Origin: an uncultured Hyphomicrobium sp.
GTDB taxonomy: Bacteria > Pseudomonadota > Alphaproteobacteria > Rhizobiales > Hyphomicrobiaceae
DNA length: 51,840 nucleotides
Assembly (NCBI GenBank): GCA_934555825.1
Contig: CAKTFJ010000009.1
Coordinates: forward strand, 1 to 51,840
Direction: 5' to 3'
Shown: in pieces, positions 17,055 through 41,883 of the stretch
How positions within the stretch are numbered: the stretch's first letter is position 1
Layout: each line of letters begins with the position of its first letter
The notes under the pieces: generated by a model
Seen by the model: only the letters and a program-made list of their open reading frames with translations
Database searches by the model: none
What the model was told of the DNA's origin: nothing
Translations under genes and position numbers: made by a program

Positions 17055-17413
17055 CGATCCTGGTCCTTTGACGATCACGCTCATGCTCAGACTTATCTCT
17101 AGGAGAAGGGACGTTCCGCCCCGTTGAGCCAACCCCTTTATCTTGCAGCGAGTTTTTTTGGAATCTCGTCTTGGCGGGGGTCGGCCGGACGCATAAAAAA
17201 CATGTCCGGACACTAGCCGAACGAGGGGTGAGAAACAATCTAAACGAGGGTTCCGAGCCCCCTCAAGGTTACGGGTCAGGCAAGCCGTTGATTTGTCTGC
17301 CACGTCGGGTTAGGGCTCGCGGGTTAAGGGTCTGCGCTGGACCCATACAACATATGTTTCACGTGGAACAAATCCGGAACATGCGGATTTGCCACAGCCT
17401 TGCGGAGAGGGTC
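17055..17413. other. divergent promoter region between purC and the ATPase zeta gene
   Basis: A 359-base gap with no gene. The sequence near 17190-17215 is AT-rich (GCATAAAAAACATG) next to TCCGGAC words and may contain promoter elements. The right part contains the parS-like site described separately, 44 bases before the zeta start codon. Confidence 0.5.
17355..17370. promoter_or_regulatory. parS-like ParB-binding site
   Basis: TGTTTCACGTGGAACA matches the near-universal bacterial chromosomal parS palindrome TGTTTCACGTGAAACA at 15 of 16 positions, keeping the CACGTG centre. parS sites load ParB clamps for chromosome segregation and cluster near the replication origin, but parA, parB and dnaA are not in this window. 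No second site was noticed. Confidence 0.65.
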
Positions 17414-17734
17414 ATGACGACGTTCGAAGATCGCGAAAAAGGGTTTGAGAAGAAATTTGCCCACGACCAGGACCTCAAGTTCCGGGCCGAAAGCCGGCGC
17501 AACAAGGCACTCGCCGAGTGGGCGGCGGCGCAGCTCGGCATTGCGGATGTCGAGGCGTACGTGAAGGACGTGCGCAAGGCGGATCTCGCCGAGAAGGGCG
17601 ACGAGGACGTGGTGCGCAAGGTGAAGGCCGACTTCGATCAGAAGGGGATCGCGATCACCGAAGACGACATTCGCGCGAAGCTTTCCGAATTTCTCGCACA
17701 GGCCGTGACCGAGATCGAGGCGAGCAAGTCGTAA
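17414..17734 (+). CDS. F1FO-ATPase inhibitor zeta subunit (DUF1476)
   Basis: A 106-residue, highly charged helical protein of the DUF1476 family, known as the zeta subunit that blocks ATP hydrolysis by the alphaproteobacterial F1-ATPase. It begins MTTFEDREKGFEKKFAHD, the inhibitory N-terminal region, followed by LKFRAESRRNKALAEWAA and the four-helix body with a C-terminal IRAKLSEFLAQAVTEIE. Start at 17414 gives the family N-terminus exactly; upstream in-frame codons run through the parS-like site and are not coding. A terminator follows 29 bases after the stop, so it is monocistronic. In related genomes it also neighbours purC (from memory). Confidence 0.93.
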   Translation: MTTFEDREKGFEKKFAHDQDLKFRAESRRNKALAEWAAAQLGIADVEAYVKDVRKADLAEKGDEDVVRKVKADFDQKGIAITEDDIRAKLSEFLAQAVTEIEASKS

Positions 17735-17837: not shown

Positions 17838-18419
17838 TTATTCGTCGAGCGTTCTCAGGAACGCGCCGAACCTCAGCACGCCATCCGGCCAAGGGCCGTG
17901 CCCGGACGCGCTGTTGACGTGGCCGACGTCTCCCGCTTCGACGAGCGTCGAGCCCCACGCCGTGGCGAGGGCGTTTGCGCGTTCGAGCGAGCAATAGGCA
18001 TCGTTCGAGGAGGCGATCATGACCGACGGGAAGGGAAACGCCTTCTTCGGCAACGGCGCGAATCCGCTTGCCGTGCCGTCGAGGGTGAGGCCCTCCGTCT
18101 CGGGCCAAGCGCTCGCATTCTCTACGTCGGCAGGCGCGACGAGGAACGCGCCCGAGAGAAAGCCCTTGGGGATGCGTTCGGCCACGTGAGCGACGGCTGC
18201 AACGCCCAGGCTGTGGGCGACGAGCACGACGGGGCGATTGCTGGCGACCGACGCGTCGATGATGCGGCCGACCCACGCCTCGCGCTCGGGCGCGAACCAA
18301 TCGTCCTGCTCGACGCGGCGCGCGGTCTTCAGCGTGCGCTCCCAGCGGGACTGCCAATGGTCGGGACCCGAGCTCGACCAGCCGGGAACGATGAGAATGT
18401 CGACGTCAGATGTACGCAT
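17838..18419 (-). CDS. RBBP9/YdeN-family serine hydrolase
   Basis: A 193-residue alpha/beta hydrolase of the RBBP9 (PF06821) type. It opens with ILIVPGWSSSGPDHWQSRWE, has the nucleophile Ser70 in LVAHSLG, the acid region in IASSNDAYCS and the catalytic His in AGDVGHVNSASGHGPWPDG. All three are present, so it should be active; substrates of bacterial members are largely unknown. It begins 7 bases after the end of the SecY-like gene on the same strand and is therefore the likely last gene of the unit that starts with the Arg-Thr repeat peptide. Whether it belongs to that system or is only carried with it is open. Confidence 0.88.
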   Translation of the reverse strand: MRTSDVDILIVPGWSSSGPDHWQSRWERTLKTARRVEQDDWFAPEREAWVGRIIDASVASNRPVVLVAHSLGVAAVAHVAERIPKGFLSGAFLVAPADVENASAWPETEGLTLDGTASGFAPLPKKAFPFPSVMIASSNDAYCSLERANALATAWGSTLVEAGDVGHVNSASGHGPWPDGVLRFGAFLRTLDE

Positions 18420-18425
18420 GGGGCC

Positions 18426-19523
18426 TCATGTAGCCGGAAATCGCTCGGGTGCAAGGGGCGGGGTCTCGGTGTGCGTCGTCGCAGGGCGGATGGTTTCCAA
18501 TATGACGAGGCCGATGGCGGCGAGGAGCAGAGCGATCTTGGCGTGCGGGAAAAAGACGCTTGCCACGACGGCTGCCACGAGAGCCGCAATGACGGGTACT
18601 GCAGCGTGGACGTTCACCCGCTCGCCGGGAAGCAGCATGCTTTTCCTACGAAGGAGCACGACTGCGGCGACGGCGATGGTGAGCATGGGCAACGTGAGCT
18701 CCATGGCGATGCCTTCGGCTACGGCGAGGGCGCTGTCTCCAGGCAGCACGAGCCAGACCGTCATGAGGACAGCGCTCACGGCCAACGTGACAGCCATGGG
18801 CGCGACGAGCGGAACCCACAGCAATTCTTGCGGGGTGGAAAGAGGCGGGCGAGCTTTCACGAGCGCCGTCAGCGCCGCTGTTGTTAGCGCAAGAAACCCG
18901 AACCATGTGGCGATCGAGAGAAGATAGTTTCCGAAGCTGATTGCTCCCATCGCGAGCAGTGGAAGCTGCAGGACGAGCGGCTGAACGAAAGTTTCGGCGT
19001 AGCTTGCGGCGAGGAGAATCCAGAAGCCGTGGCCCAGTCCGTGCCGCGTGATGCCGTCGCTCAACCAGACGATGATGAGCGTGGCGCCGACGAACGATAC
19101 CGTGGCGCCCACTTGGAACGCGGCGCCGGGCGCGATCACCACGCCGGGGATCGCTTCGAGCGCGCGGGCCACGCCCCAGGCTTGCAGGGCGGCGAGGGTA
19201 AGCGCGGCGATGATTGCTCCGCGCCAGAGTTTCGTGCGTCCGCTCGGCGTTTCGCCCCACCGTCGAAGACGCGGCGAGAGGCACAGCAGACCTTCTGCCA
19301 AGACGAGTGCTGTCAGCAGCGGCAAAAGGCCAAGCGCCATGATGGACGTCGATGGGCGGGAGACGGAGAAGGTGTCGAGCGTGCCCGCCTGAGCCAAAGC
19401 CGCGAGATTGAGACCAGGCAAGGGGATCCACTGCCCGACGCGGTAGAGACCGAGGGCGAGTAGTGTGACGGCGATGCGGCGGAGGAGATCGGGAGTGAGG
19501 AAGCGCGCGGGGGTGTCTGTCAT
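18426..19523 (-). CDS. short SecY paralogue (protein-translocase-like channel)
   Basis: A 365-residue membrane protein with about 10 hydrophobic segments, the SecY number, but some 70 residues shorter than housekeeping SecY. The N-terminal half aligns with SecY position by position: LLRRIAVTLLALGLYRVGQWIPLPGLN, then SIMALGLLPLLTAL, then SGRTK before TM3, then VIAPGAAF and WLSDGITRHGLGHG (compare WLGEQITERGIGNG in E. coli). The cytoplasmic loops after TM6 and TM8, which bind SecA and ribosomes, are reduced to a few residues (LVKARPPLSTP and LLRRKSMLLPGERVN). Start at 19523 follows domain alignment; 19535 and 19559 are possible. It lies 75 bases after the PqqD-like gene, in the unit led by the Arg-Thr peptide. 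No secE, secG or secA is nearby. Confidence 0.82.
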   Translation of the reverse strand: MTDTPARFLTPDLLRRIAVTLLALGLYRVGQWIPLPGLNLAALAQAGTLDTFSVSRPSTSIMALGLLPLLTALVLAEGLLCLSPRLRRWGETPSGRTKLWRGAIIAALTLAALQAWGVARALEAIPGVVIAPGAAFQVGATVSFVGATLIIVWLSDGITRHGLGHGFWILLAASYAETFVQPLVLQLPLLAMGAISFGNYLLSIATWFGFLALTTAALTALVKARPPLSTPQELLWVPLVAPMAVTLAVSAVLMTVWLVLPGDSALAVAEGIAMELTLPMLTIAVAAVVLLRRKSMLLPGERVNVHAAVPVIAALVAAVVASVFFPHAKIALLLAAIGLVILETIRPATTHTETPPLAPERFPAT

Positions 19524-19598
19524 CGGCGCGATCATAGCCCGTCGCGGCGGCGTTCCCAAGCCGGGGTCCGGACTTCGGTCGCGCCCTGTTGCATCCGT

Positions 19599-19928
19599 TC
19601 AGCGGTCGGCGGCGACGTATCCCGCTTCGTGCAACGCATCCAGCACGGACTTGACGTCATGCGCGAGGTCTGTCCGGCTCCGCTCGGGATAGGCGGCGGC
19701 GAAGATATCGACGATCTCGGTCTCCGAGCGCGGGGTCTCAAGGAGTTTCCAGATTGCCGCGCCGGTGGGGTTCAGCTCGTGAATGGCGTTGAGGCTGCTG
19801 CCGGACAGGAAGAGGTGCGCATCCGCCGCCCGCGCCACAATGTCCGCCTGCCGGCGGTAGCGCGTCCGTGCCGACGGCCTACCGGCCGCGTCAGGCTGTG
19901 GGGAGCGCGCATGCGGTCGCGATATCAT
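19599..19928 (-). CDS. PqqD-like protein (RRE-type peptide-binding domain), HPr-rel-A system
   Basis: A 109-residue protein whose core (residues 30-108) is a PqqD/RRE winged-helix domain: a beta hairpin, LNAIHELNPTGAAIWKLLE, then ETEIVDIFAAAYP and DVKSVLDALHEAGYV. PqqD domains bind leader peptides of ribosomally made, modified peptides and present them to the enzyme. The N-terminal 25 residues are basic and low in complexity. Its start overlaps the end of the HprK-like gene by 38 bases, implying tight coupling. The pairing with an HprK-related kinase matches the TIGRFAM-defined 'HPr-rel-A system' (family recalled, not searched), whose function is unknown. Confidence 0.8.
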   Translation of the reverse strand: MISRPHARSPQPDAAGRPSARTRYRRQADIVARAADAHLFLSGSSLNAIHELNPTGAAIWKLLETPRSETEIVDIFAAAYPERSRTDLAHDVKSVLDALHEAGYVAADR

Positions 19929-20769
19929 CGGCGGCCTCCCTGAGGTTGCTGTAGCGAAGGCGAAAGATTTCGGCCTGGTTCAAGACGGCGTGCAGGGTGG
20001 CGAGGGCATGGGCGTGGTCTCCCCGGCAGCCGAAGCTCTGCAGCACGAGTTCGCGAAGCGCGTCGGCGGCGGAGAGGCGTTCGAGGCGTACGGCCCCGGA
20101 GGGCTTACGGTCGAGCAGAACGATGGCGCCCACCGGTGCCGTCGTGCCCTGTGCGGCCCAGTGGGCCGGGTCGGGCGGCACGTAGGCCCATTTCGCATTG
20201 GAGAGCCCGAGATGCGCCTTTGCATACGCCGTGATGCGCGCGCCCGGGCTGTGTGGAAACGGCCGGCGCATCACCGGCGCGACACCGAGGGCGATGCCGG
20301 CTAGCGTCTCGCCGTCGATGGCGAGCACGTCGTCGCAGAAGAACGTATGGCCCGCCGCGGCAAGCTCGATCGAAAGGCTCGACTTACCCGCCTTGCCGAC
20401 GGCGGGAAAGCATACGAGCTGCGATCCCACCCTCACGGCGCCCGCGTGCAGGCACAGCCTTTTCGGATGGGCGAGTTGATACCAGTCGAACAGGGCGTCG
20501 TGGATGTCCGAGACGGCGTCCCTGTCCGTGACCGGCGGTGACTCGTCCCAATATTTGGGTTTTGGGAGCGTTTCGGAGGCCCAGTCGTAGCCGTCCGCGG
20601 TGGAGGTGATTGTGACGTCGGCGCGGGTTGCGCGACTTTTCGGGAGGCGGACGAGGTCCCAGCCGTGAAGGATGGTCTCCAGGCCATGCAAGACAGGATC
20701 GCAATTGACGAATGCGATGGACCATCCGGCCTGGCGTGAGCGCACAACTGTGGTGACCGAGGTCGTCAC
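19891..20769 (-). CDS. HprK-related kinase A-like protein
   Basis: A 292-residue protein with an HPr-kinase-like core. Visible are LCLHAGAVRVGSQLVCFPA leading into the P-loop VGKAGKSSLS (about 124-133) and FFCDDVLAID (143-152), where the paired Asp residues act like Walker B in HprK. True HprK phosphorylates Ser46 of HPr; this family lacks the N-terminal HprK domain and its substrate is unknown. The start is GTG at 20769 with a strong GGGGAGG about 8 bases upstream. A 10-bp hairpin separates it from the Arg-Thr peptide gene 64 bases upstream, and the PqqD-like gene overlaps its 3' end. The context suggests it modifies a peptide or carrier in this unit. Confidence 0.82.
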   Translation of the reverse strand: MTTSVTTVVRSRQAGWSIAFVNCDPVLHGLETILHGWDLVRLPKSRATRADVTITSTADGYDWASETLPKPKYWDESPPVTDRDAVSDIHDALFDWYQLAHPKRLCLHAGAVRVGSQLVCFPAVGKAGKSSLSIELAAAGHTFFCDDVLAIDGETLAGIALGVAPVMRRPFPHSPGARITAYAKAHLGLSNAKWAYVPPDPAHWAAQGTTAPVGAIVLLDRKPSGAVRLERLSAADALRELVLQSFGCRGDHAHALATLHAVLNQAEIFRLRYSNLREAADDIATACALPTA

Positions 20770-20790
20770 GGGCCGTCCTCCCCTGAGAGG

Positions 20791-20815
20791 GCCAGCGCAG
20801 ACGAGCTGCGCTGGC
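20791..20815 (-). promoter_or_regulatory. stem-loop between the Arg-Thr peptide gene and the HprK-like gene
   Basis: A perfect 10-bp stem GCCAGCGCAG (20791-20800) / CTGCGCTGGC (20806-20815), loop ACGAG, located 18 bases after the peptide stop codon and 21 before the kinase start. No T run follows, so it is more likely a stability or partial-termination element. That would raise the amount of peptide mRNA over enzyme mRNA, as in many modified-peptide operons. Confidence 0.7.
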
Positions 20816-20833
20816 GGTCTTGCGGGAATGGCG

Positions 20834-21022
20834 TCAACGGCGGCGTGTGCGTGTGCGGGTTCGCGTCCGTGTTCGCGTGCGGGTCCGGCCGTGCGGATCG
20901 GCCTTGGCTTCCGTGAGGTTGAGAAGGGAGGGGGCCGCGTATCCGGCGGCCGCGGCGAGCCCGAGCATGGAGAGCGCGCGACGGCGCGAGAGGTGCGATC
21001 CGTCAGCCTTGTTCTTTGTCAT
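20834..21022 (-). CDS. Tat-signal peptide with seven Arg-Thr repeats (putative precursor)
   Basis: A 62-residue product. Residues 1-41 form a twin-arginine signal: SRRRALSML, hydrophobic GLAAAAGYAAPSLL, then an AKA cleavage site. The remainder is DPHG followed by (Arg-Thr)7 and Arg-Arg-Arg, giving a tiny, extremely basic mature peptide. The repeats use mixed synonymous codons (CGC, CGA, CGG; ACA, ACC, ACG), so they are kept as protein and are not simple DNA slippage. AGAGG lies upstream of the ATG at 21022. It heads a minus-strand unit with an HprK-like kinase, a PqqD-like protein and a SecY paralogue, which marks it as the likely substrate. Other readings: a small exported nucleic-acid- or polyanion-binding peptide. 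Confidence 0.78.
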   Translation of the reverse strand: MTKNKADGSHLSRRRALSMLGLAAAAGYAAPSLLNLTEAKADPHGRTRTRTRTRTRTRTRRR

Positions 21023-21195: not shown

Positions 21196-22122
21196 TTACG
21201 GCGCAGATGTGCGTTTGGCCCGGCTGTCGCCCCAGGTGAAGAGGCCGACGCCGAGCAACACGAGCGCGGCGCCGAAGGCATCGGCGGCTGTGAAGGGCTC
21301 GTGCAGGATCGCGATGGCGAGGCCGATGGTCACCAATGGCGAGACGGTCGCGATCATGGAGACGGCCTGAGACGAGACGCGTGCGAGGCCCGCGCTGATC
21401 AGAAACGTCGGCAGCACCGTTGCGACGACGGCGCAGCCCGCGGCCAGCCACATGAAGCGTGGCGTGGCGGTGAAGCTTCCGCTCCCGAAGACAACGTGAT
21501 GGAGCACGCAGAAGACGCCGGCGGAGGTGAGCGCAATACTCGTGAAGAGTGTCGGCCCCAGGTGCAAGATCACGCGCTTGGCCAGGATCTGGTGCCAGGC
21601 GAACGAGATCGCCGCGCCGAGGACGAGGGCCGTACCTAGGGCCGTGTCGCGTCCGCCGACAGGAAGGTCGACCGCGAATACGACGGCAAGCCCGGCATAC
21701 GTGACGACGGCGGCGGCGATGCCGAACGCGGTGATGGCTTCGGCATAGAACACCGCGCCGATGATCATCACGAACAGCGGGTAGGTGAAGAGCACGAGCC
21801 GTTCGAGGCTGGCGGATATGTATTGCAGGCCCGCGAAGTCGAAAGCGGAGGCCATGTAGTAGCCGACGAAGCCTACGAAGCAGGCCCAGGCGATGCTTTG
21901 CCAATCGGGTGCGGGGTCGCCTTTCGCCATGCGCTTCGCCATGGCCCAGAGACCGATGGCGACGAACACGGGCGTTGCGAAGATCATGCGGTAGGCGAGG
22001 AACAGCGAGGCGTCGAGCTGATCCTGGTAGGCGAGCTTGATGAAGATCGCCTTCGTCGAGAAAAAGGCCGCGCCAAGGGCGGCGCAGCCGTAGCCGATAA
22101 GGCTGGTCAGGGGGCGGCTCAT
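21196..22122 (-). CDS. EamA/DMT-family permease
   Basis: A 308-residue inner-membrane protein with ten predicted helices in two EamA repeats (about residues 8-145 and 160-300), the layout of drug/metabolite transporters. Family marks are the early AALGAAFFSTKAIFIKLAY, the end-of-repeat helix LERLVLFTYPLFVMIIGAVFYAE and, in repeat two, VSMIATVSPLVTIGLAIAILHEPFT. The substrate is not predictable. It lies downstream of purB and 173 bases upstream of the Arg-Thr peptide gene on the same strand. That gap likely contains the promoter of the peptide unit, so linkage is uncertain. Confidence 0.9.
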   Translation of the reverse strand: MSRPLTSLIGYGCAALGAAFFSTKAIFIKLAYQDQLDASLFLAYRMIFATPVFVAIGLWAMAKRMAKGDPAPDWQSIAWACFVGFVGYYMASAFDFAGLQYISASLERLVLFTYPLFVMIIGAVFYAEAITAFGIAAAVVTYAGLAVVFAVDLPVGGRDTALGTALVLGAAISFAWHQILAKRVILHLGPTLFTSIALTSAGVFCVLHHVVFGSGSFTATPRFMWLAAGCAVVATVLPTFLISAGLARVSSQAVSMIATVSPLVTIGLAIAILHEPFTAADAFGAALVLLGVGLFTWGDSRAKRTSAP

Positions 22123-22179: not shown

Positions 22180-23487
22180 TTATGCCGAGCCGAAGACGCG
22201 CGCGAAAATGGTGTCCACGTGCTTGAGGTGATAGCCGAGGTCGAACAGCGCTTCGAGCTCCGCTGCCGGGACTTTCGCCGTCACGTCCGTGTCGGCTTTG
22301 AGCTCGGCCAGGAAGTCTGCGCCGTGCTCCCACGTTTTCATCGCGTTGCGCTGGACGAGGGAATACGACTCCTCGCGTGAGGCACCGGCCTGGGTGAGCG
22401 CAAGCAGCACACGCTGCGAATTGTGCAGGCCGCCGAGCTTGTCGAGGTTTTTCTGCATGTTCTCAGGATAGACCACGAGCTTTTCGATGACGCCTGCGAG
22501 GCGGTTCAGTGCGAAGTCGAGGGTTACGGTCGCGTCTGGGCCGATCATGCGCTCCGCAGACGAGTGCGAGATGTCCCGCTCGTGCCAGAGCGCGACGTTC
22601 TCCATGGCGGGAAGCGCATACGCACGCACCATGCGGGCGAGGCCGGTGATGTTCTCGGTCAGCACGGGGTTTCTTTTGTGCGGCATGGCGGAGGAGCCCT
22701 TCTGGCCGACGGAGAAGAACTCCTCGGCCTCGAGCACTTCGGTGCGCTGCAGGTGGCGGATTTCGGTCGCGAGGCGCTCCATGGACGAGGCGACGACAGC
22801 GAGCGTGGCGAAGAACATGGCGTGGCGGTCGCGCGGGATGACCTGTGTCGAGACCGGCTCCGGTTCGAGTCCAAGCTTCTCTGCGACGTACACTTCAACC
22901 GAAGGATCGATGTTGGCGAAGGTGCCGACGGCGCCCGAAATGGCGCAGGTGGCCACCTCGCGGCGGGCCGCAACGAGCCGTTCGCGGGCACGGGCGAACT
23001 CCGCGTAGGCGTAGGCCAGCTTGACACCGAACGTCGTCGGTTCGGCGTGGATGCCGTGGCTGCGCCCGATGGTGACGGTGGTCTTATGCTCGAAGGCGCG
23101 CGTCTTGAGGGCCGCGAGAAGGCGGTCGACGTCGGCGATCAGGAGGTCGGCGGCGCGGACGAGCTGCACGTTGAGGCAGGTATCGAGTACGTCCGACGAC
23201 GTCATGCCCTGGTGCACGAAGCGTGCTTCCGGTCCCACGAGTTCGGCCAGGTGAGTGAGGAAAGCGATGACGTCGTGCTTGGTGACGGCTTCGATCTCAT
23301 CGATGCGCTGGGTGTCGAAGATGGCCTTTGAGCCCTTTTCCCAGATCACGCGCGCCGCATCCTTCGGCACGATTCCGATCTCGGCCATGGCGGTCGCCGC
23401 GTGCGCTTCGATCTCGAACCAGATGCGGAAGCGTGTCTCGGGCGTCCAGATGGATGCCATTTCAGGGCGCGTGTAACGGGGAATCAT
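22180..23487 (-). CDS. purB: adenylosuccinate lyase
   Basis: Cleaves SAICAR to AICAR and adenylosuccinate to AMP, releasing fumarate. The 435-residue protein begins MIPRYTRPEMASIWTPETRF, with KHDVIAFL, HQGMTSSDVLDT, SHGIHAEPTTFG (catalytic His) and the signature SSAMPHKRNPVLTE, the mobile loop with the catalytic Ser. Length is normal. It is separated from purC by about 5 kb carrying the zeta gene and the Arg-Thr peptide unit. The upstream gap of 583 bases contains no gene. Confidence 0.97.
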   Translation of the reverse strand: MIPRYTRPEMASIWTPETRFRIWFEIEAHAATAMAEIGIVPKDAARVIWEKGSKAIFDTQRIDEIEAVTKHDVIAFLTHLAELVGPEARFVHQGMTSSDVLDTCLNVQLVRAADLLIADVDRLLAALKTRAFEHKTTVTIGRSHGIHAEPTTFGVKLAYAYAEFARARERLVAARREVATCAISGAVGTFANIDPSVEVYVAEKLGLEPEPVSTQVIPRDRHAMFFATLAVVASSMERLATEIRHLQRTEVLEAEEFFSVGQKGSSAMPHKRNPVLTENITGLARMVRAYALPAMENVALWHERDISHSSAERMIGPDATVTLDFALNRLAGVIEKLVVYPENMQKNLDKLGGLHNSQRVLLALTQAGASREESYSLVQRNAMKTWEHGADFLAELKADTDVTAKVPAAELEALFDLGYHLKHVDTIFARVFGSA

Positions 23488-31946: not shown

Positions 31947-32282
31947 TCACTCCACCTTGAGCTTATAGCGCTCGATGGTGATGCCTCCGTCGTCGTCATG
32001 CCAGGCGACGCGCAGTTCGCCGGGGCCGGGCACCTTCATATGAAATGCGAGAAACGGGTTTGCTGAAATGCCCGAGCTTAGCTCGGCCTTGAACACCAGA
32101 TCCCCTTCAAAGTGGGCGGTGACGGTGTGGATGATGTTGCGTGGTACGCGCCGGCCTTCGGCATCCGTGCGATTGCCCGTTTCCATCACGTGGGTGATCA
32201 GAGCGCGGATCTCGATGATCTCGCCGACAGCGGCGGTCTCGGGTAGGCGAACACGGGGCTTGGACGGGCTCATCATGCTCAC
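31947..32282 (-). CDS. soxZ: sulfur-carrier complex subunit SoxZ
   Basis: A 111-residue protein that forms the periplasmic SoxYZ heterodimer, which carries sulfur intermediates during thiosulfate or sulfide oxidation. It has the immunoglobulin-like SoxZ fold: PRVRLPETAAVGEIIEIRALITHVMETGNR, GRRVPRNIIHTVTAHF, SSGISANPFLAFHMKVP and WHDDDGG. It has no signal peptide and relies on co-export with SoxY through Tat, as is normal. Its ATG overlaps the soxY stop (ATGA). Confidence 0.96.
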   Translation of the reverse strand: MSMMSPSKPRVRLPETAAVGEIIEIRALITHVMETGNRTDAEGRRVPRNIIHTVTAHFEGDLVFKAELSSGISANPFLAFHMKVPGPGELRVAWHDDDGGITIERYKLKVE

Positions 32283-32818
32283 CCTTCTCCGCAGCCGCCG
32301 ATGCCGACGTATACAATTCGGCGCGCGACGAGGTGCGTGTTCGCAGTTGTGACGGCAACGGCGATCACCTCTTGCGTCTTGGCGAGCCTCATTCTCCCCT
32401 GGACAGCGGCTTGTCCCGAGAGCGGCGTGAAATGAAACGTTGCGACGTGCGCCTGCGGGTTCTGCGTCGAGAACAGGTGGACGCGGGTCACGTGATCCTC
32501 GGCCGTCATCGGACTTTCGACGCCGATGCGATAGGGCACGATGTTGCCGTTCTCGGCTTCCTCGGGAAGCTCGAGGCTTAGTCCTCCGTCTTCAAGGAGC
32601 GTGGCCTTGCCGACGATGTCGGTGAAGGCTTTCTCGAACTGCGGCGTGGGTGTCAGCGGTGCGGGTTCGGCGAGGGCGGCGGCTGCGCGATCCGAGACGA
32701 CACCTCCTGCAAATGTATCGCGTGATGTGAGCGCGCTCGTGACAGCGGCGGCGGCGCTCGCGGCCAGCAGTGTGCGGCGATCGATGCGTTGAGGCGATTG
32801 TCTCGTCGCGGACGTCAC
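32279..32818 (-). CDS. soxY: sulfur-carrier complex subunit SoxY
   Basis: A Tat-exported SoxY of about 179 residues. The signal is DRRTLLAASAAAAVTSA. The mature part is SoxY-like (ITEDG-type region as VGKATLLEDGGLSLELPE, then VPYRIGVESPM), and the C-terminus is GGCGEG, the swinging arm whose Cys binds sulfur; most SoxY end GGCGG, and here Glu precedes the last Gly. The GTG start at 32818 gives a normal Tat n-region and has AGGAG 13 bases upstream; the ATG at 32878 has its GGGAGG touching the codon and is less likely. It is divergent from soxS across about 100 bases, which must hold both promoters. Confidence 0.93.
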   Translation of the reverse strand: MTSATRQSPQRIDRRTLLAASAAAAVTSALTSRDTFAGGVVSDRAAAALAEPAPLTPTPQFEKAFTDIVGKATLLEDGGLSLELPEEAENGNIVPYRIGVESPMTAEDHVTRVHLFSTQNPQAHVATFHFTPLSGQAAVQGRMRLAKTQEVIAVAVTTANTHLVARRIVYVGIGGCGEG

Positions 32819-32920
32819 GATTGGCTTTTCACTCCTGTCGGCGGGGCCAAGCCTCGCGGTCATCGTGCTTTTCGGCATCCTCCCGGACTGCTAGCATGGG
32901 AGCAAAAGAAGGTGCAAATC

Positions 32921-33352: not shown

Positions 33353-34666
33353 ATGCGCGATGTGATCCGTCGTGAAATGACCCGCCGTGCGGTCACGGCA
33401 GGACTTGCCGCCTTGCCGTTGTTCGGCGCCGTGGGTGCGCGTGCAGCCTCGGGCGCGCGGGTGGTCATCGTCGGCGGTGGTGCCGGCGGGGCGACGGTCG
33501 CGGTGACGCTCAAACGCGCTGTGCCACTGCTTGACGTCACGTTGATCGAGCCGGAGCAGGATTACACGAGTTGCTTTCACTCCAACCACTACCTCGGCGG
33601 GTTCGTCCCGGTGGAACGCATCACGCATGGATATAGTGGACTGTCTGCCCTCGGCGTCACGCTGGTTCGCGATCGCGCGGTGGGGTTCGACTTTTCGAAC
33701 AGAGAGGTGCGAACGGAGGGCGGCGCCAGCATAGGTTACGACCGGCTGGTCGTGGCGCCCGGCATCGGTTTCAAAAAGGACGAGATCGAAGGCTATGACG
33801 ACACCGCGCGCGAGGTCATGCCTCATGCATGGTCTGGTGGCGTGCAAGTGCGGGCGCTCAGGTCGCAGATCGAGGCGATGGAGGATGGCGGTCTCGTCGT
33901 TATCGCGCCGCCGCGCAATCCCTACCGCTGCCCGCCGGGGCCTTACGAGCGCGCGTGCCTGATTGCGCACTACCTCAAGACCGCCAAGCCCAAGAGCAAA
34001 GTGATCGTGATCGATCCTAAGATGACGTACTCGAAGCAAGCCGTTTTCGAGGAGGGGATCGCGAAATACTACAAGGATCTCATCGAAGTTCATCTGACCA
34101 ACGATCTCGACGATATGGCGCTGCAACGGGTGGACGCTCGGACCGGAGAACTCGTTACTAAATCCGGGGACGTCTTCAAGGCGGCGGTGGCCAACGTCAT
34201 TCCCGATCAGACGGCCGGCAAGATCGCCCTCGATGCCGGGCTGACCGACAAGAGCGGGTGGTGCCCAGTCGAGCTATCGACCTTCCGCTCCACGATGGCT
34301 GAGCATGTGTACGTGGTGGGCGATGCGGCGGTGGCGGCCGAGATGCCGAAGTCCGCCTATTCCGCCAGCGATCAGGCGCGCGCGGTGGCCGGGCATATTC
34401 TCGCAGATCTCACGGATACGCCGCGTCCGCCTGCGGTCTACCGTAACACGTGCTGGTCGATGCTCGCGCCCGACGACAGCGTCTGGATCGGTGCCGATTA
34501 TGCCCCCGGAGAGTTCCGCGGGCGTGCGGTTCTCGTGCCGCGCGACAGCTTCATCTCGGCGCCGGGGGAGCAGGCGAGCGTGAGGAAGGCGACCTATGAT
34601 GGTGGGATCGCCTGGTATCAGACGCTGACCGACGAGATGTTCGCGAAGGCCGATGCGCGGAACTGA
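33353..34666 (+). CDS. soxF: sulfide dehydrogenase flavoprotein SoxF/FccB
   Basis: A 437-residue Tat-exported FAD enzyme (signal TRRAVTAGLAALPLFGAVGARAA). It has the FAD motif VVIVGGGAGGATVA, the region YTSCFHSNHYLGG, the redox Cys in NPYRCPPGPYERAC and its partner Cys in YRNTCWSM, which together form the active-site disulfide of flavocytochrome c sulfide dehydrogenase. HVYVVGDAA is the second FAD contact. It would oxidise sulfide to sulfur or polysulfide, or reactivate SoxYZ. The usual cytochrome partner gene (soxE/fccA) is not adjacent; downstream is a 315-base gap and then fadE. Confidence 0.94.
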   Translation: MRDVIRREMTRRAVTAGLAALPLFGAVGARAASGARVVIVGGGAGGATVAVTLKRAVPLLDVTLIEPEQDYTSCFHSNHYLGGFVPVERITHGYSGLSALGVTLVRDRAVGFDFSNREVRTEGGASIGYDRLVVAPGIGFKKDEIEGYDDTAREVMPHAWSGGVQVRALRSQIEAMEDGGLVVIAPPRNPYRCPPGPYERACLIAHYLKTAKPKSKVIVIDPKMTYSKQAVFEEGIAKYYKDLIEVHLTNDLDDMALQRVDARTGELVTKSGDVFKAAVANVIPDQTAGKIALDAGLTDKSGWCPVELSTFRSTMAEHVYVVGDAAVAAEMPKSAYSASDQARAVAGHILADLTDTPRPPAVYRNTCWSMLAPDDSVWIGADYAPGEFRGRAVLVPRDSFISAPGEQASVRKATYDGGIAWYQTLTDEMFAKADARN

Positions 34667-40908: not shown

Positions 40909-41001
40909 TCCAGATCAGACGACGGAAATCGTCTGGCCTGTGCGTTCTCGCGCTTGAAGGGGCGATCCACGGATCGCACCTTATTACGCATGGGGACGAA
41001 A

Positions 41002-41883
41002 ATGACAGAGAACAACGGGATCTCACGTCGCGGCGCGCTGGCAGGGCTGGCCGGGTCTGCGGCGCTTTTGGGTGGCGGCAACCGTGCGTCGGCGGCAGGG
41101 CCGGAGATATCCGCCCCCGCGGCAGCCTCGCCGCATGGCGTCTGTCACATGACGCCGCGGATGGTGGAAGGCCCATTCTATTTCGACCCTGACCTGGTCA
41201 GGAGCGACATCACGGAGGGACGCGCCGGCGTTCCGCTCCGCGTCGTGCTTCAGATCACAGACGGCGCGACATGCCAGCCCATCCCGGGCGCTCGCGTCGA
41301 TCTCTGGCATTGCGATGCCACGGGGCAGTATTCCGGCTACGATGGTCAGGGCGACGATCGGAGCATTTCAACCAAGGGCGAAAAGTTTCTGCGCGGAACG
41401 CAGACGACGAACGCCACGGGCGAGGTTGCGTTCACGACGATCTACCCCGGATGGTATCGGGGCCGCACGACGCACATTCACTTCAAGGTGTTGCTCGACG
41501 AAAAATCGATGCTGACAGGGCAGATGTATTTCCCGGATGCGCTCTCGGAATACATCTTCACAAACATCGCGCCCTACACGGAGCGTACGGCCAAGCGCGA
41601 CACGCTGAACAGCACGGATTGGATTGCGGCCGCGGATGGGGATCACATCACGTACGTCGGTGTGCGCGAAGAGGCGGACGCTTACGTGGCGACGCTCGTC
41701 ATCGGTGTGGACCCTGCAGCCGCGCCCGAGCGGGCCGGGATGGGCCGGCCTCCCGGACCGCCGCCCGGTGGCCCGGGTGGTCCGCCGCCTGGAGCGCGTC
41801 CGCCGGGACCTCCGCCGGGGATGGAAGGCGGTCCGACGCGACCGCGGGGGACCGGCTCCATCGTGCCGGGCGGCGAGACCTGA
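41002..41883 (+). CDS. Tat-exported intradiol dioxygenase-like protein with a Pro/Gly-rich tail
   Basis: A 293-residue protein. A Tat signal (ISRRGALAGLAGSAALLGG) leads to an intradiol ring-cleavage dioxygenase-like domain. It has GVPLRVVLQI, PIPGARVDLWHCDATGQYSGY (first Tyr ligand region) and PGWYRGRTTHIHFKV, which carries the second Tyr and the two His of the 2-Tyr/2-His Fe(III) site. All four ligands appear present. Cytoplasmic intradiol enzymes cleave catechols; exported ones have unclear substrates. The final 60 residues are Pro/Gly-rich (repeats of PPGPPPG) and probably disordered. Start at 41002 gives the Tat n-region; 40990 is possible. It lies after fadI and converges with fadD. Confidence 0.86.
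   Translation: MTENNGISRRGALAGLAGSAALLGGGNRASAAGPEISAPAAASPHGVCHMTPRMVEGPFYFDPDLVRSDITEGRAGVPLRVVLQITDGATCQPIPGARVDLWHCDATGQYSGYDGQGDDRSISTKGEKFLRGTQTTNATGEVAFTTIYPGWYRGRTTHIHFKVLLDEKSMLTGQMYFPDALSEYIFTNIAPYTERTAKRDTLNSTDWIAAADGDHITYVGVREEADAYVATLVIGVDPAAAPERAGMGRPPGPPPGGPGGPPPGARPPGPPPGMEGGPTRPRGTGSIVPGGET

What the first reader, a model, noticed from the sequence alone, without database searches (positions are those of the whole stretch)
17838..21022. Unit with Tat-type Arg-Thr repeat peptide, HprK-like kinase, PqqD-like binder and short SecY paralogue
Five minus-strand genes lie in order with gaps of 75 bases or less or with overlaps. First is a 62-residue peptide with a Tat signal and a (Arg-Thr)7-RRR tail, then an HprK-related kinase, a PqqD/RRE-type protein, a 10-helix SecY relative with reduced cytoplasmic loops, and a small serine hydrolase. 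Kinase plus PqqD-like protein corresponds to the uncharacterised 'HPr-rel-A' pairing. PqqD domains bind peptide leaders and HprK-type kinases act on Ser/Thr, so I infer that the peptide is the substrate (possibly Thr-modified) and that the SecY-like protein takes part in export or insertion. I know of no description of this combination.
Basis: partly seen in the sequence, partly recalled or inferred. Interest (0 to 1): 0.92.

Follow-up and report, generated by a model that had tools for sequence, protein, structure and literature searches.

The report
Export-signal peptide with kinase and adaptor
A tiny, very basic bacterial peptide that carries an export signal is encoded next to a kinase and a peptide-binding adaptor, and related gene sets suggest that the adaptor grips the export signal so that the kinase can modify the peptide before it leaves the cell; this is predicted from sequence and not yet tested.

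Summary
The five genes are there as described, but they are not one unit. The recurring core is peptide + HprK-like kinase + PqqD-like adaptor. A small RR-signal peptide lies beside the kinase in 16 of 20 plasmid loci fetched; none of 24 loci has the short SecY or the hydrolase. The hydrolase is an old neighbour of DUF1476-purC.

The peptide's Tat-like signal holds YAAPSL, fitting the [Y/W]xxPx[L/V/I/F/A] motif bound by lasso and LPP adaptors. The adaptor keeps the Asp and Asn that contact Tyr and Pro in the solved LppB complex. In Shinella and Paracoccus the neighbouring S8 protease bears the same RR...YxxP...AxA leader. Within 30 residues of RR, YxxP occurs in 0 of 40 other Tat signals from the same and related plasmids.

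Best reading: a relative of linear polyphosphorylated peptides (LPPs) in which the Tat signal doubles as adaptor-binding leader; a kinase with the lasso-kinase His-Lys-Asp-Asp set modifies the tail before export. Pairing is supported by comparison; binding, phosphorylation and export are inferred. It misses the HPr-rel-A cut-offs. The SecY paralogue is real (10-helix SecY fold) but its link is unproven.

The parts
20834..21022 (-). 62-residue peptide: RR signal, YAAPSL motif, AKA site, (Arg-Thr)7-RRR tail; proposed substrate
   Evidence: relatives
20924..20941 (-). YAAPSL (residues 28-33), fits the [Y/W]xxPx[L/V/I/F/A] motif bound by lasso/LPP adaptors
   Evidence: motif from PMC13381572
20837..20887 (-). 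(Arg-Thr)7-RRR tail, mixed codons; the seven Thr are the candidate phosphorylation sites
   Evidence: site is inferred
19891..20769 (-). HprK-like kinase, GTG start; His108, Lys129, Asp146, Asp147
19599..19928 (-). PqqD-like adaptor (RRE); Asn53 and Asp91 align with LppB N33 and D70
   Evidence: contacts from PMC13381572 section 8
18426..19535 (-). Short SecY paralogue, 369 aa, ten helices; adjacent, link to the unit unproven
   Evidence: absent from L003-L026
17838..18419 (-). RBBP9-type serine hydrolase (PF06821); chromosomal backbone, not part of the unit

Best explanation
Peptide, kinase and PqqD-like protein form a small peptide-modification system related to linear polyphosphorylated peptides and phosphorylated lasso peptides, but exported by the Tat route. 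The PqqD-like adaptor binds the YxxPxL motif that lies inside the peptide's Tat-type signal and presents the tail to the HprK-like kinase, which phosphorylates hydroxyl residues (here probably Thr of the Arg-Thr repeat). The adaptor then lets go, Tat exports the modified peptide, and signal peptidase cuts after A-x-A. Shown by comparison: gene linkage, leader motif, adaptor contact residues, kinase catalytic residues. Inferred: binding, phosphorylation, the residue modified, Tat export, and the function outside (perhaps a charged envelope or matrix component). The SecY paralogue is an optional or unrelated neighbour; the hydrolase is backbone.
For: RR-signal small ORF near the kinase in 16 of 20 loci; in 23 loci the script gave 18 hits, of which I reject one (L020) by reading, against a chance expectation of 0.17 per locus. 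YxxPx[L/V/M] in the window peptide, P0018 and the Shinella, Paracoccus (2) and Methylobacterium peptides, Tyr 13-18 residues after the first R. The S8 proteases beside the Shinella and Paracoccus kinases have the same leader; seven leaders share M, R, R, L, G, Y, P, A, A. Control: YxxP within 30 residues of RR in 0 of 40 Tat signals. A leader profile finds only peptide and S8 in Shinella, these plus one weak place in Paracoccus, the peptide in Methylobacterium. Adaptor profile matches TbiB1, TfuB1, LppB, PbaB1; Asp91 in 9 of 9, Asn53 in 8 of 9. Kinase His-Lys-Asp-Asp in 19 of 19, the set reported as essential in lasso kinases (PMC9266682 passages). LppK, an HprK-like kinase with an RRE partner, phosphorylates its peptide (PMC13381572).
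Against: No biochemical data. No Tat model reaches its cut-off on the window peptide. LppK did not modify Thr in place of its Ser, and the window peptide has no Ser just after A-x-A, unlike most relatives. 12 of the 18 aligned peptides lack YxxP and have another motif. The single window PqqD matches TbiB1 only at E 0.017. Kinase relatives without a peptide exist: L017, and three lasso-type clusters L020, L024, L026. The HPr-rel-A Vibrio locus shows no PqqD in its 7-kb flanks by annotation or profile. Loci are related to each other and all come from plasmid records; no genome of the window's own kin could be read.
Confidence: 0.62

Rival explanations
1. The whole block is one export machine: the short SecY moves or inserts the modified peptide.
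For: Same strand, gaps of at most 64 bases; full SecY fold; no exporter otherwise beside the genes.
Against: SecY-short matches none of 24 related kinase loci. SecY relatives at 50% identity or more form 9 clusters, kinase relatives 4, with no shared contig length (weak, as lengths may be those of cluster representatives and candidates were capped). Its loops after model helices 6 and 8 are 7 and 8 residues. The leader is of Tat type by reading.
Confidence: 0.12
2. The pair modifies something else (for example a sugar, lipid or another protein) and the peptide is an independent Tat-exported or membrane peptide that merely shares the operon.
For: No binding data. Three of the four loci with no peptide copy are lasso-type clusters, so this kinase family has other substrates. 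One Leisingera and one Parasedimentitalea locus lie beside polysaccharide genes.
Against: Repeated linkage of RR-signal peptides to the pair; leader motif confined to linked genes in the plasmids searched; same leader on neighbouring S8 proteases.
Confidence: 0.12
3. The adaptor-kinase pair adds a different group: the kinase primes Ser/Thr and a nucleotidyltransferase encoded elsewhere finishes a nucleotidyl or sugar modification, as reported for pseudomycoidin.
For: NTP_transf_5 genes lie by the kinase in group II loci and in the two HPr-rel-A loci; PsmN adds hexose to the phosphorylated Ser (PMC9266682 passages).
Against: No such frame in the window, and none annotated near the Shinella and Paracoccus fusions.
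Confidence: 0.1

Closest known systems
Linear polyphosphorylated peptides (LPP) of Bacillota (Popov et al., Nat Commun 2026, PMC13381572; abstract, passages, sections 6, 8, 12 read)
   Same: HprK-like kinase, discrete RRE, precursor of 35-200 aa with YxxPxV/L in its N-terminal part and a variable tail
   Different: LPP clusters have a SipW-like peptidase LppS, an MsbA-like exporter and an NTP transferase, none seen beside the window unit; there the leader is not described as a Tat signal; LppK acts on Ser, not Thr
Phosphorylated (paeninodin-type) lasso peptides with PadeK/ThcoK kinases (PMC9266682 passages)
   Same: HprK-like kinase with His-Lys-Asp-Asp; RRE binding [Y/W]xxP leaders
   Different: No B2 protease or macrolactam cyclase in the unit; tail is a basic repeat
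HPr-rel-A (NCBIfam TIGR04352 / TIGR04353)
   Same: Homologous kinase; PqqD-like partner; RR-signal neighbour in the Sphingomonas (L023) and Vibrio (L025) loci
   Different: Window proteins far below both cut-offs; no nucleotidyltransferase
Housekeeping SecY / accessory SecY2 (for the neighbour gene)
   Different: 369 aa; loops after model helices 6 and 8 only 7-8 residues, where SecA and ribosomes dock in SecY (docking recalled); sequence match limited to profile positions up to about 229 of 360

Membership tests
LPP (linear polyphosphorylated peptides) | HprK-like kinase | tested here: met
   Catalytic residues 19 of 19; PEPCK/HprK fold
LPP (linear polyphosphorylated peptides) | Discrete RRE with YxxP contacts | tested here: met
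   Profile match to LppB and relatives; D91 9 of 9, N53 8 of 9; contacts. By sequence only
LPP (linear polyphosphorylated peptides) | Precursor with YxxPxVLxHQxIxFETxxS | tested here: inconclusive
   YAAPSLL matches the first part only
LPP (linear polyphosphorylated peptides) | SpI peptidase, MsbA-like exporter and NTP transferase in the cluster | tested here: not met
   No NTP transferase frame in the window; none of the ten genes from purQ to purB scanned with Pfam is a peptidase of that kind or an ABC exporter
LPP (linear polyphosphorylated peptides) | Peptide is phosphorylated | not testable with these tools
   Needs mass spectrometry
HPr-rel-A | TIGR04352 at or above 200 bits | tested here: not met
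   42.1 bits
HPr-rel-A | TIGR04353 at or above 35 bits | tested here: not met
   14.9 bits
Lasso peptide cluster | B2 protease and Asn-synthetase-like cyclase | tested here: not met
   None among the genes scanned with Pfam around the unit
Tat substrate | RR motif, hydrophobic stretch, A-x-A | tested here: met
   By reading: SRRRALSMLGLAAAAGYAAPSLLNLTEAKA
Tat substrate | Curated Tat model over its cut-off | tested here: not met
   Best formate_TAT 14 v 48.45 bits
Tat substrate | Tat-dependent export | not testable with these tools
   Needs an export assay
SecY / SecY2 (neighbour gene) | SecY fold | tested here: met
SecY / SecY2 (neighbour gene) | NCBIfam equivalog cut-offs (TIGR00967 253.6; TIGR02920 249.6 bits) | tested here: not met
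   77.6 and 23 bits

The most novel reading that the evidence does not exclude
A class of peptide-modification systems in Proteobacteria uses the Tat export signal itself as the leader: the adaptor-binding motif is built into the signal's hydrophobic part, so the PqqD-like adaptor is both the guide for the kinase and a Tat-signal chaperone, and export waits for modification. The same leader has been placed on full proteins (S8 proteases with Arg/Ser-rich linkers), so the system modifies exported proteins as well as peptides. The annotated but unexplained HPr-rel-A pairs would be further members.
Probability: 0.45. Interest if true: 0.88.

Novelty: new variant of a known kind. Interest (0 to 1): 0.74.

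Why it matters
If right, it gives a substrate and a direction to kinase/PqqD pairs that are annotated without a known role, and shows that an export signal can double as a recognition leader, so that modification and Tat export compete for, or hand over, one sequence. It predicts phosphorylated, Arg-rich exported peptides and proteases in soil and marine Alphaproteobacteria and can be tested with three small proteins in E. coli.

Tried and rejected
HPr-rel-A membership: rejected on cut-offs. SecY and hydrolase as core parts: not supported by relatives. Viral contigs for the SecY paralogue: 11 stretches matched a pattern, none encodes a relative. Plasmids: 23 records match SecY-short, none over 80% of it; the annotated ones are named SecY. 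The genome-contig scan gave one locus, an ordinary SecY in a Phycisphaeraceae bacterium, so the chromosomal context of close relatives could not be read; kinase and PqqD family searches in that one genome were uninformative. Contig lengths of SecY and kinase clusters share nothing, but may be those of representatives only: weak. Microsatellite origin of the repeat: unlikely, mixed codons. Promoter/terminator scan: one sigma-70-like site at the SecY start, none upstream of the peptide, no terminator. Co-variation of the adaptor Asp with YxxP leaders: 4 of 4 against 3 of 12, p 0.019; poor alignment of group II and related rows, so not used as main evidence; one search also compared 9 of 21 leaders with 0 of 40 (p 1.7e-5), not quoted as evidence because the leaders are homologous and P0018's linkage is unknown. 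PqqD by Pfam was checked in group II only for L005 and L018. P0019 as a plasmid query found only Shinella; P0018 lies on a 1,096-base contig, context unknown. Literature: no paper holds 'HPr-rel-A', 'HprK-related kinase' with 'PqqD' or 'PqqD' with 'HprK'; other searches: 58 (4 papers), 73 (15 of 33 listed), 99 (1), 100 (2), 103 (0), 126 (10 of 381 listed), 127 (2), seen as listings except PMC13381572 and PMC9266682. Only open PMC papers are held.
Full report
Observation. On the minus strand the window reads purB (22180-23487), an EamA transporter (21196-22122), peptide, kinase, PqqD-like gene, SecY relative and hydrolase; then a DUF1476/ATPase-zeta gene on the plus strand (within 17411-17734) and purC, purS (by reading) and purQ on the minus strand. 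Gaps within the block are +64, -38, +63 and +6 bases; EamA ends 173 bases before the peptide. The peptide is MTKNKADGSHLSRRRALSMLGLAAAAGYAAPSLLNLTEAKADPHG(RT)7RRR. Its repeat uses mixed codons. One database relative was found, P0018, with the same leader and a tail of Arg, RT and RG.

Which genes belong together. tblastn of the kinase against 72,556 plasmid records gave 7 records; I fetched 4 of the 7. Shinella and Paracoccus plasmids carry a kinase fused to PqqD (413-417 aa), directly upstream a small RR-signal basic peptide, before it an S8 protease, and a divergent sigma factor with a further gene that reads as anti-sigma. A Sinorhizobium record has a PqqD-kinase fusion, a nucleotidyltransferase and an RR-signal small protein. 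Searching with that fusion gave 35 records; I fetched 16 of them, chosen from the hit table before looking at their peptides. A script for short ORFs with RR and a hydrophobic stretch, read for position, found one near the kinase on the same strand in 16 of these 20 loci. The four without: L017 (Methylosinus, none seen), L019 (Asn synthase present), L020 (lasso cluster) and L021 (peptide present but leader and tail in different frames).

A wider count used 23 loci, with L026 standing for L019 (same record) and L023-L025 added (1 of 5 records and 3 of 30, L026 among them). The script gave 18 of 23. One of these (L020) I reject as a spurious frame, leaving 17. L021 has the broken copy; L025 (Vibrio) was missed by the script but its 270-aa neighbour reads SRRRFIRSAAISSPILL; L017, L020, L024 and L026 have none. 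Twelve hits in the remaining sequence give a chance expectation of 0.17 per locus. The Sphingomonas locus annotated HPr-rel-A has a 161-aa RR-signal protein right before PqqD; its kinase and the Vibrio one pass TIGR04352 (228.2 and 323.9 v 200 bits). No PqqD is annotated or found by profile in the Vibrio flanks. Loci of one genus are not independent; those with a peptide come from Shinella, Paracoccus, Sinorhizobium/Ensifer, Rhizobium, Leisingera, Parasedimentitalea, Novosphingobium, Methylobacterium and Sphingomonas.

The leader. The 18 aligned peptides share RR and a Gly. Six of 18 (window, P0018, Shinella, Paracoccus twice, Methylobacterium) contain Y-x-x-P-x-[L/V/M] in the signal, Tyr 13-18 residues after the first R; 11 of the other 12 have [F/Y]xxx[T/V/A][P/T]P[A/V], and L010 has YAAATPAA. 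Popov et al. state that most discrete lasso adaptors bind [Y/W]xxPx[L/V/I/A/F/Y] and that YxxP is essential for LppB; Met, in the Shinella peptide, is outside that list. The S8 proteases beside the fusion kinases begin with LTRRRMLQRLGIATGLAYAAPALLG (Shinella, after 14 residues) and TTRRALLTRMGLAAGLAYATPTLIG (Paracoccus, after 6), then an Arg/Ser-rich linker and the protease domain. Seven such leaders share M, R, R, L, G, Y, P, A and A.

Controls for the leader. Seven plasmid records gave 74 TAT_signal_seq matches at E 1 or better (an eighth record was not searched). I took the 40 best (E up to 0.05, four of them under the model's cut-off; 5 of the 40 come from the two plasmids with YxxP leaders, 35 from group II plasmids). 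Within 30 residues of RR, YxxP occurs in 0 of 40 and the second motif in 0 of 40. Within 40 residues bare YxxP occurs in 5 of 40 and the full motif in 0; extending to 45 brings one full motif (L070, YRNPAL). In all five the Tyr is 34-36 residues after the first R, by reading in the mature part. Shuffling single leaders gives the motif with probability 0.015-0.032. A leader profile found two places in the Shinella plasmid (peptide, S8), those two plus one at E 0.002 in the Paracoccus plasmid, the peptide in Methylobacterium, and none in two group II records; these loci helped build the profile, so only the lack of other places is informative. S8 relatives are common (130 records, 25 listed): the 6 listed that carry the kinase (Paracoccus 4, Shinella 2) align from residue 1-5, the other 19 only from residue 70 or later. 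The two I read (Sinorhizobium medicae, Paracoccus sp. TOH) have a hydrophobic N-terminus without RR and an Asp-rich linker, beside a sigma factor gene as well. So the leader seems to be on the protease only where the kinase is.

Adaptor and kinase. A profile of nine adaptors matches TbiB1 (3e-9), TfuB1 (3e-8), LppB (4e-5) and PbaB1 (2e-4); the kinase-PqqD profile matches LppB best (1.5e-8); the window PqqD alone reaches TbiB1 only at E 0.017. In the LppB-leader complex D70 hydrogen-bonds the Tyr and N33 fixes the Pro kink. From the alignment (chain numbering minus 18, my deduction from the residues named in the paper) these are D91 and N53 in the window; D91 is kept in 9 of 9 and N53 in 8 of 9. 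In the diverged group II adaptors the Asp is kept in 3 of 12, which would fit their different motif but rests on a poor alignment. The kinase keeps His108, Lys129, Asp146 and Asp147 in 19 of 19; a review reports this set as conserved and essential in lasso kinases (PMC9266682 passages). Its model (pLDDT 90.6) matches PEPCK first (TM by query length up to 0.62) and HprK/P from rank 32, the PEPCK/HprK fold.

Mechanism. The most economical reading is adaptor-guided phosphorylation of the tail before Tat export. LppK puts several phosphates on one Ser at core position 3, and Thr there was not modified. By reading, all 12 group II peptides and 4 of the 6 YxxP peptides have Ser at +1 or +2 after A-x-A; the window peptide and P0018 do not. 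In the window only the seven Thr remain in the mature part, so the target residue is the weakest link. Export is inferred from the RR signal. The rival that the SecY paralogue exports the peptide is not excluded locally but has no support from relatives.

Novelty. Kin are LPP, phosphorylated lasso and HPr-rel-A systems; the window misses defining genes or cut-offs of each. What I did not find in the held library (several lists were cut) is a Tat signal that is also the adaptor-binding leader, or this peptide-kinase-PqqD set in Alphaproteobacteria.

Noticed in passing
L003 5064-6401; L004 5200-6468; L006 5209-6477: S8 proteases beside the kinase-PqqD fusions carry an RR/YxxP leader and an Arg/Ser-rich linker, where the two kinase-less relatives read (L103, L104) have a signal without RR and an Asp-rich linker.
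   Followed up: partly
L005-L016, L022 small proteins: Group II peptides have a different kept signal motif, [F/Y]xxx[T/V/A][P/T]P[A/V], and Ser at +1 or +2 after A-x-A; this may be a second adaptor-binding motif.
   Followed up: partly
L023 7026-7511; L025 5878-6690: Loci annotated HprK-related kinase A in Sphingomonas and Vibrio also have an RR-signal protein next to the kinase, possibly the missing substrate of HPr-rel-A.
   Followed up: partly
L020, L024, L026: Lasso-type clusters on Azospirillum and Butyrivibrio plasmids and on a Hyphomicrobiales plasmid include a relative of this kinase; the Azospirillum one also has a 2OG-Fe(II) oxygenase.
   Followed up: no
window 18426-19535 and P0004, P0006, P0008: SecY-short relatives at 53-60% overall identity share a nearly identical N-terminus (MIAPMTDT.ARFLT.DLLRRI), while the 75% relative P0003 does not.
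   Followed up: no
window 32279-32878 and 33353-34666: SoxY-type (PF13501) and flavocytochrome c sulfide dehydrogenase-type genes, both with RR signals by reading: sulfur oxidation genes about 11 kb from the unit.
   Followed up: no
window 40990-41883: An RR-signal protein with a dioxygenase C domain (PF00775); its signal lacks YxxP.
   Followed up: no
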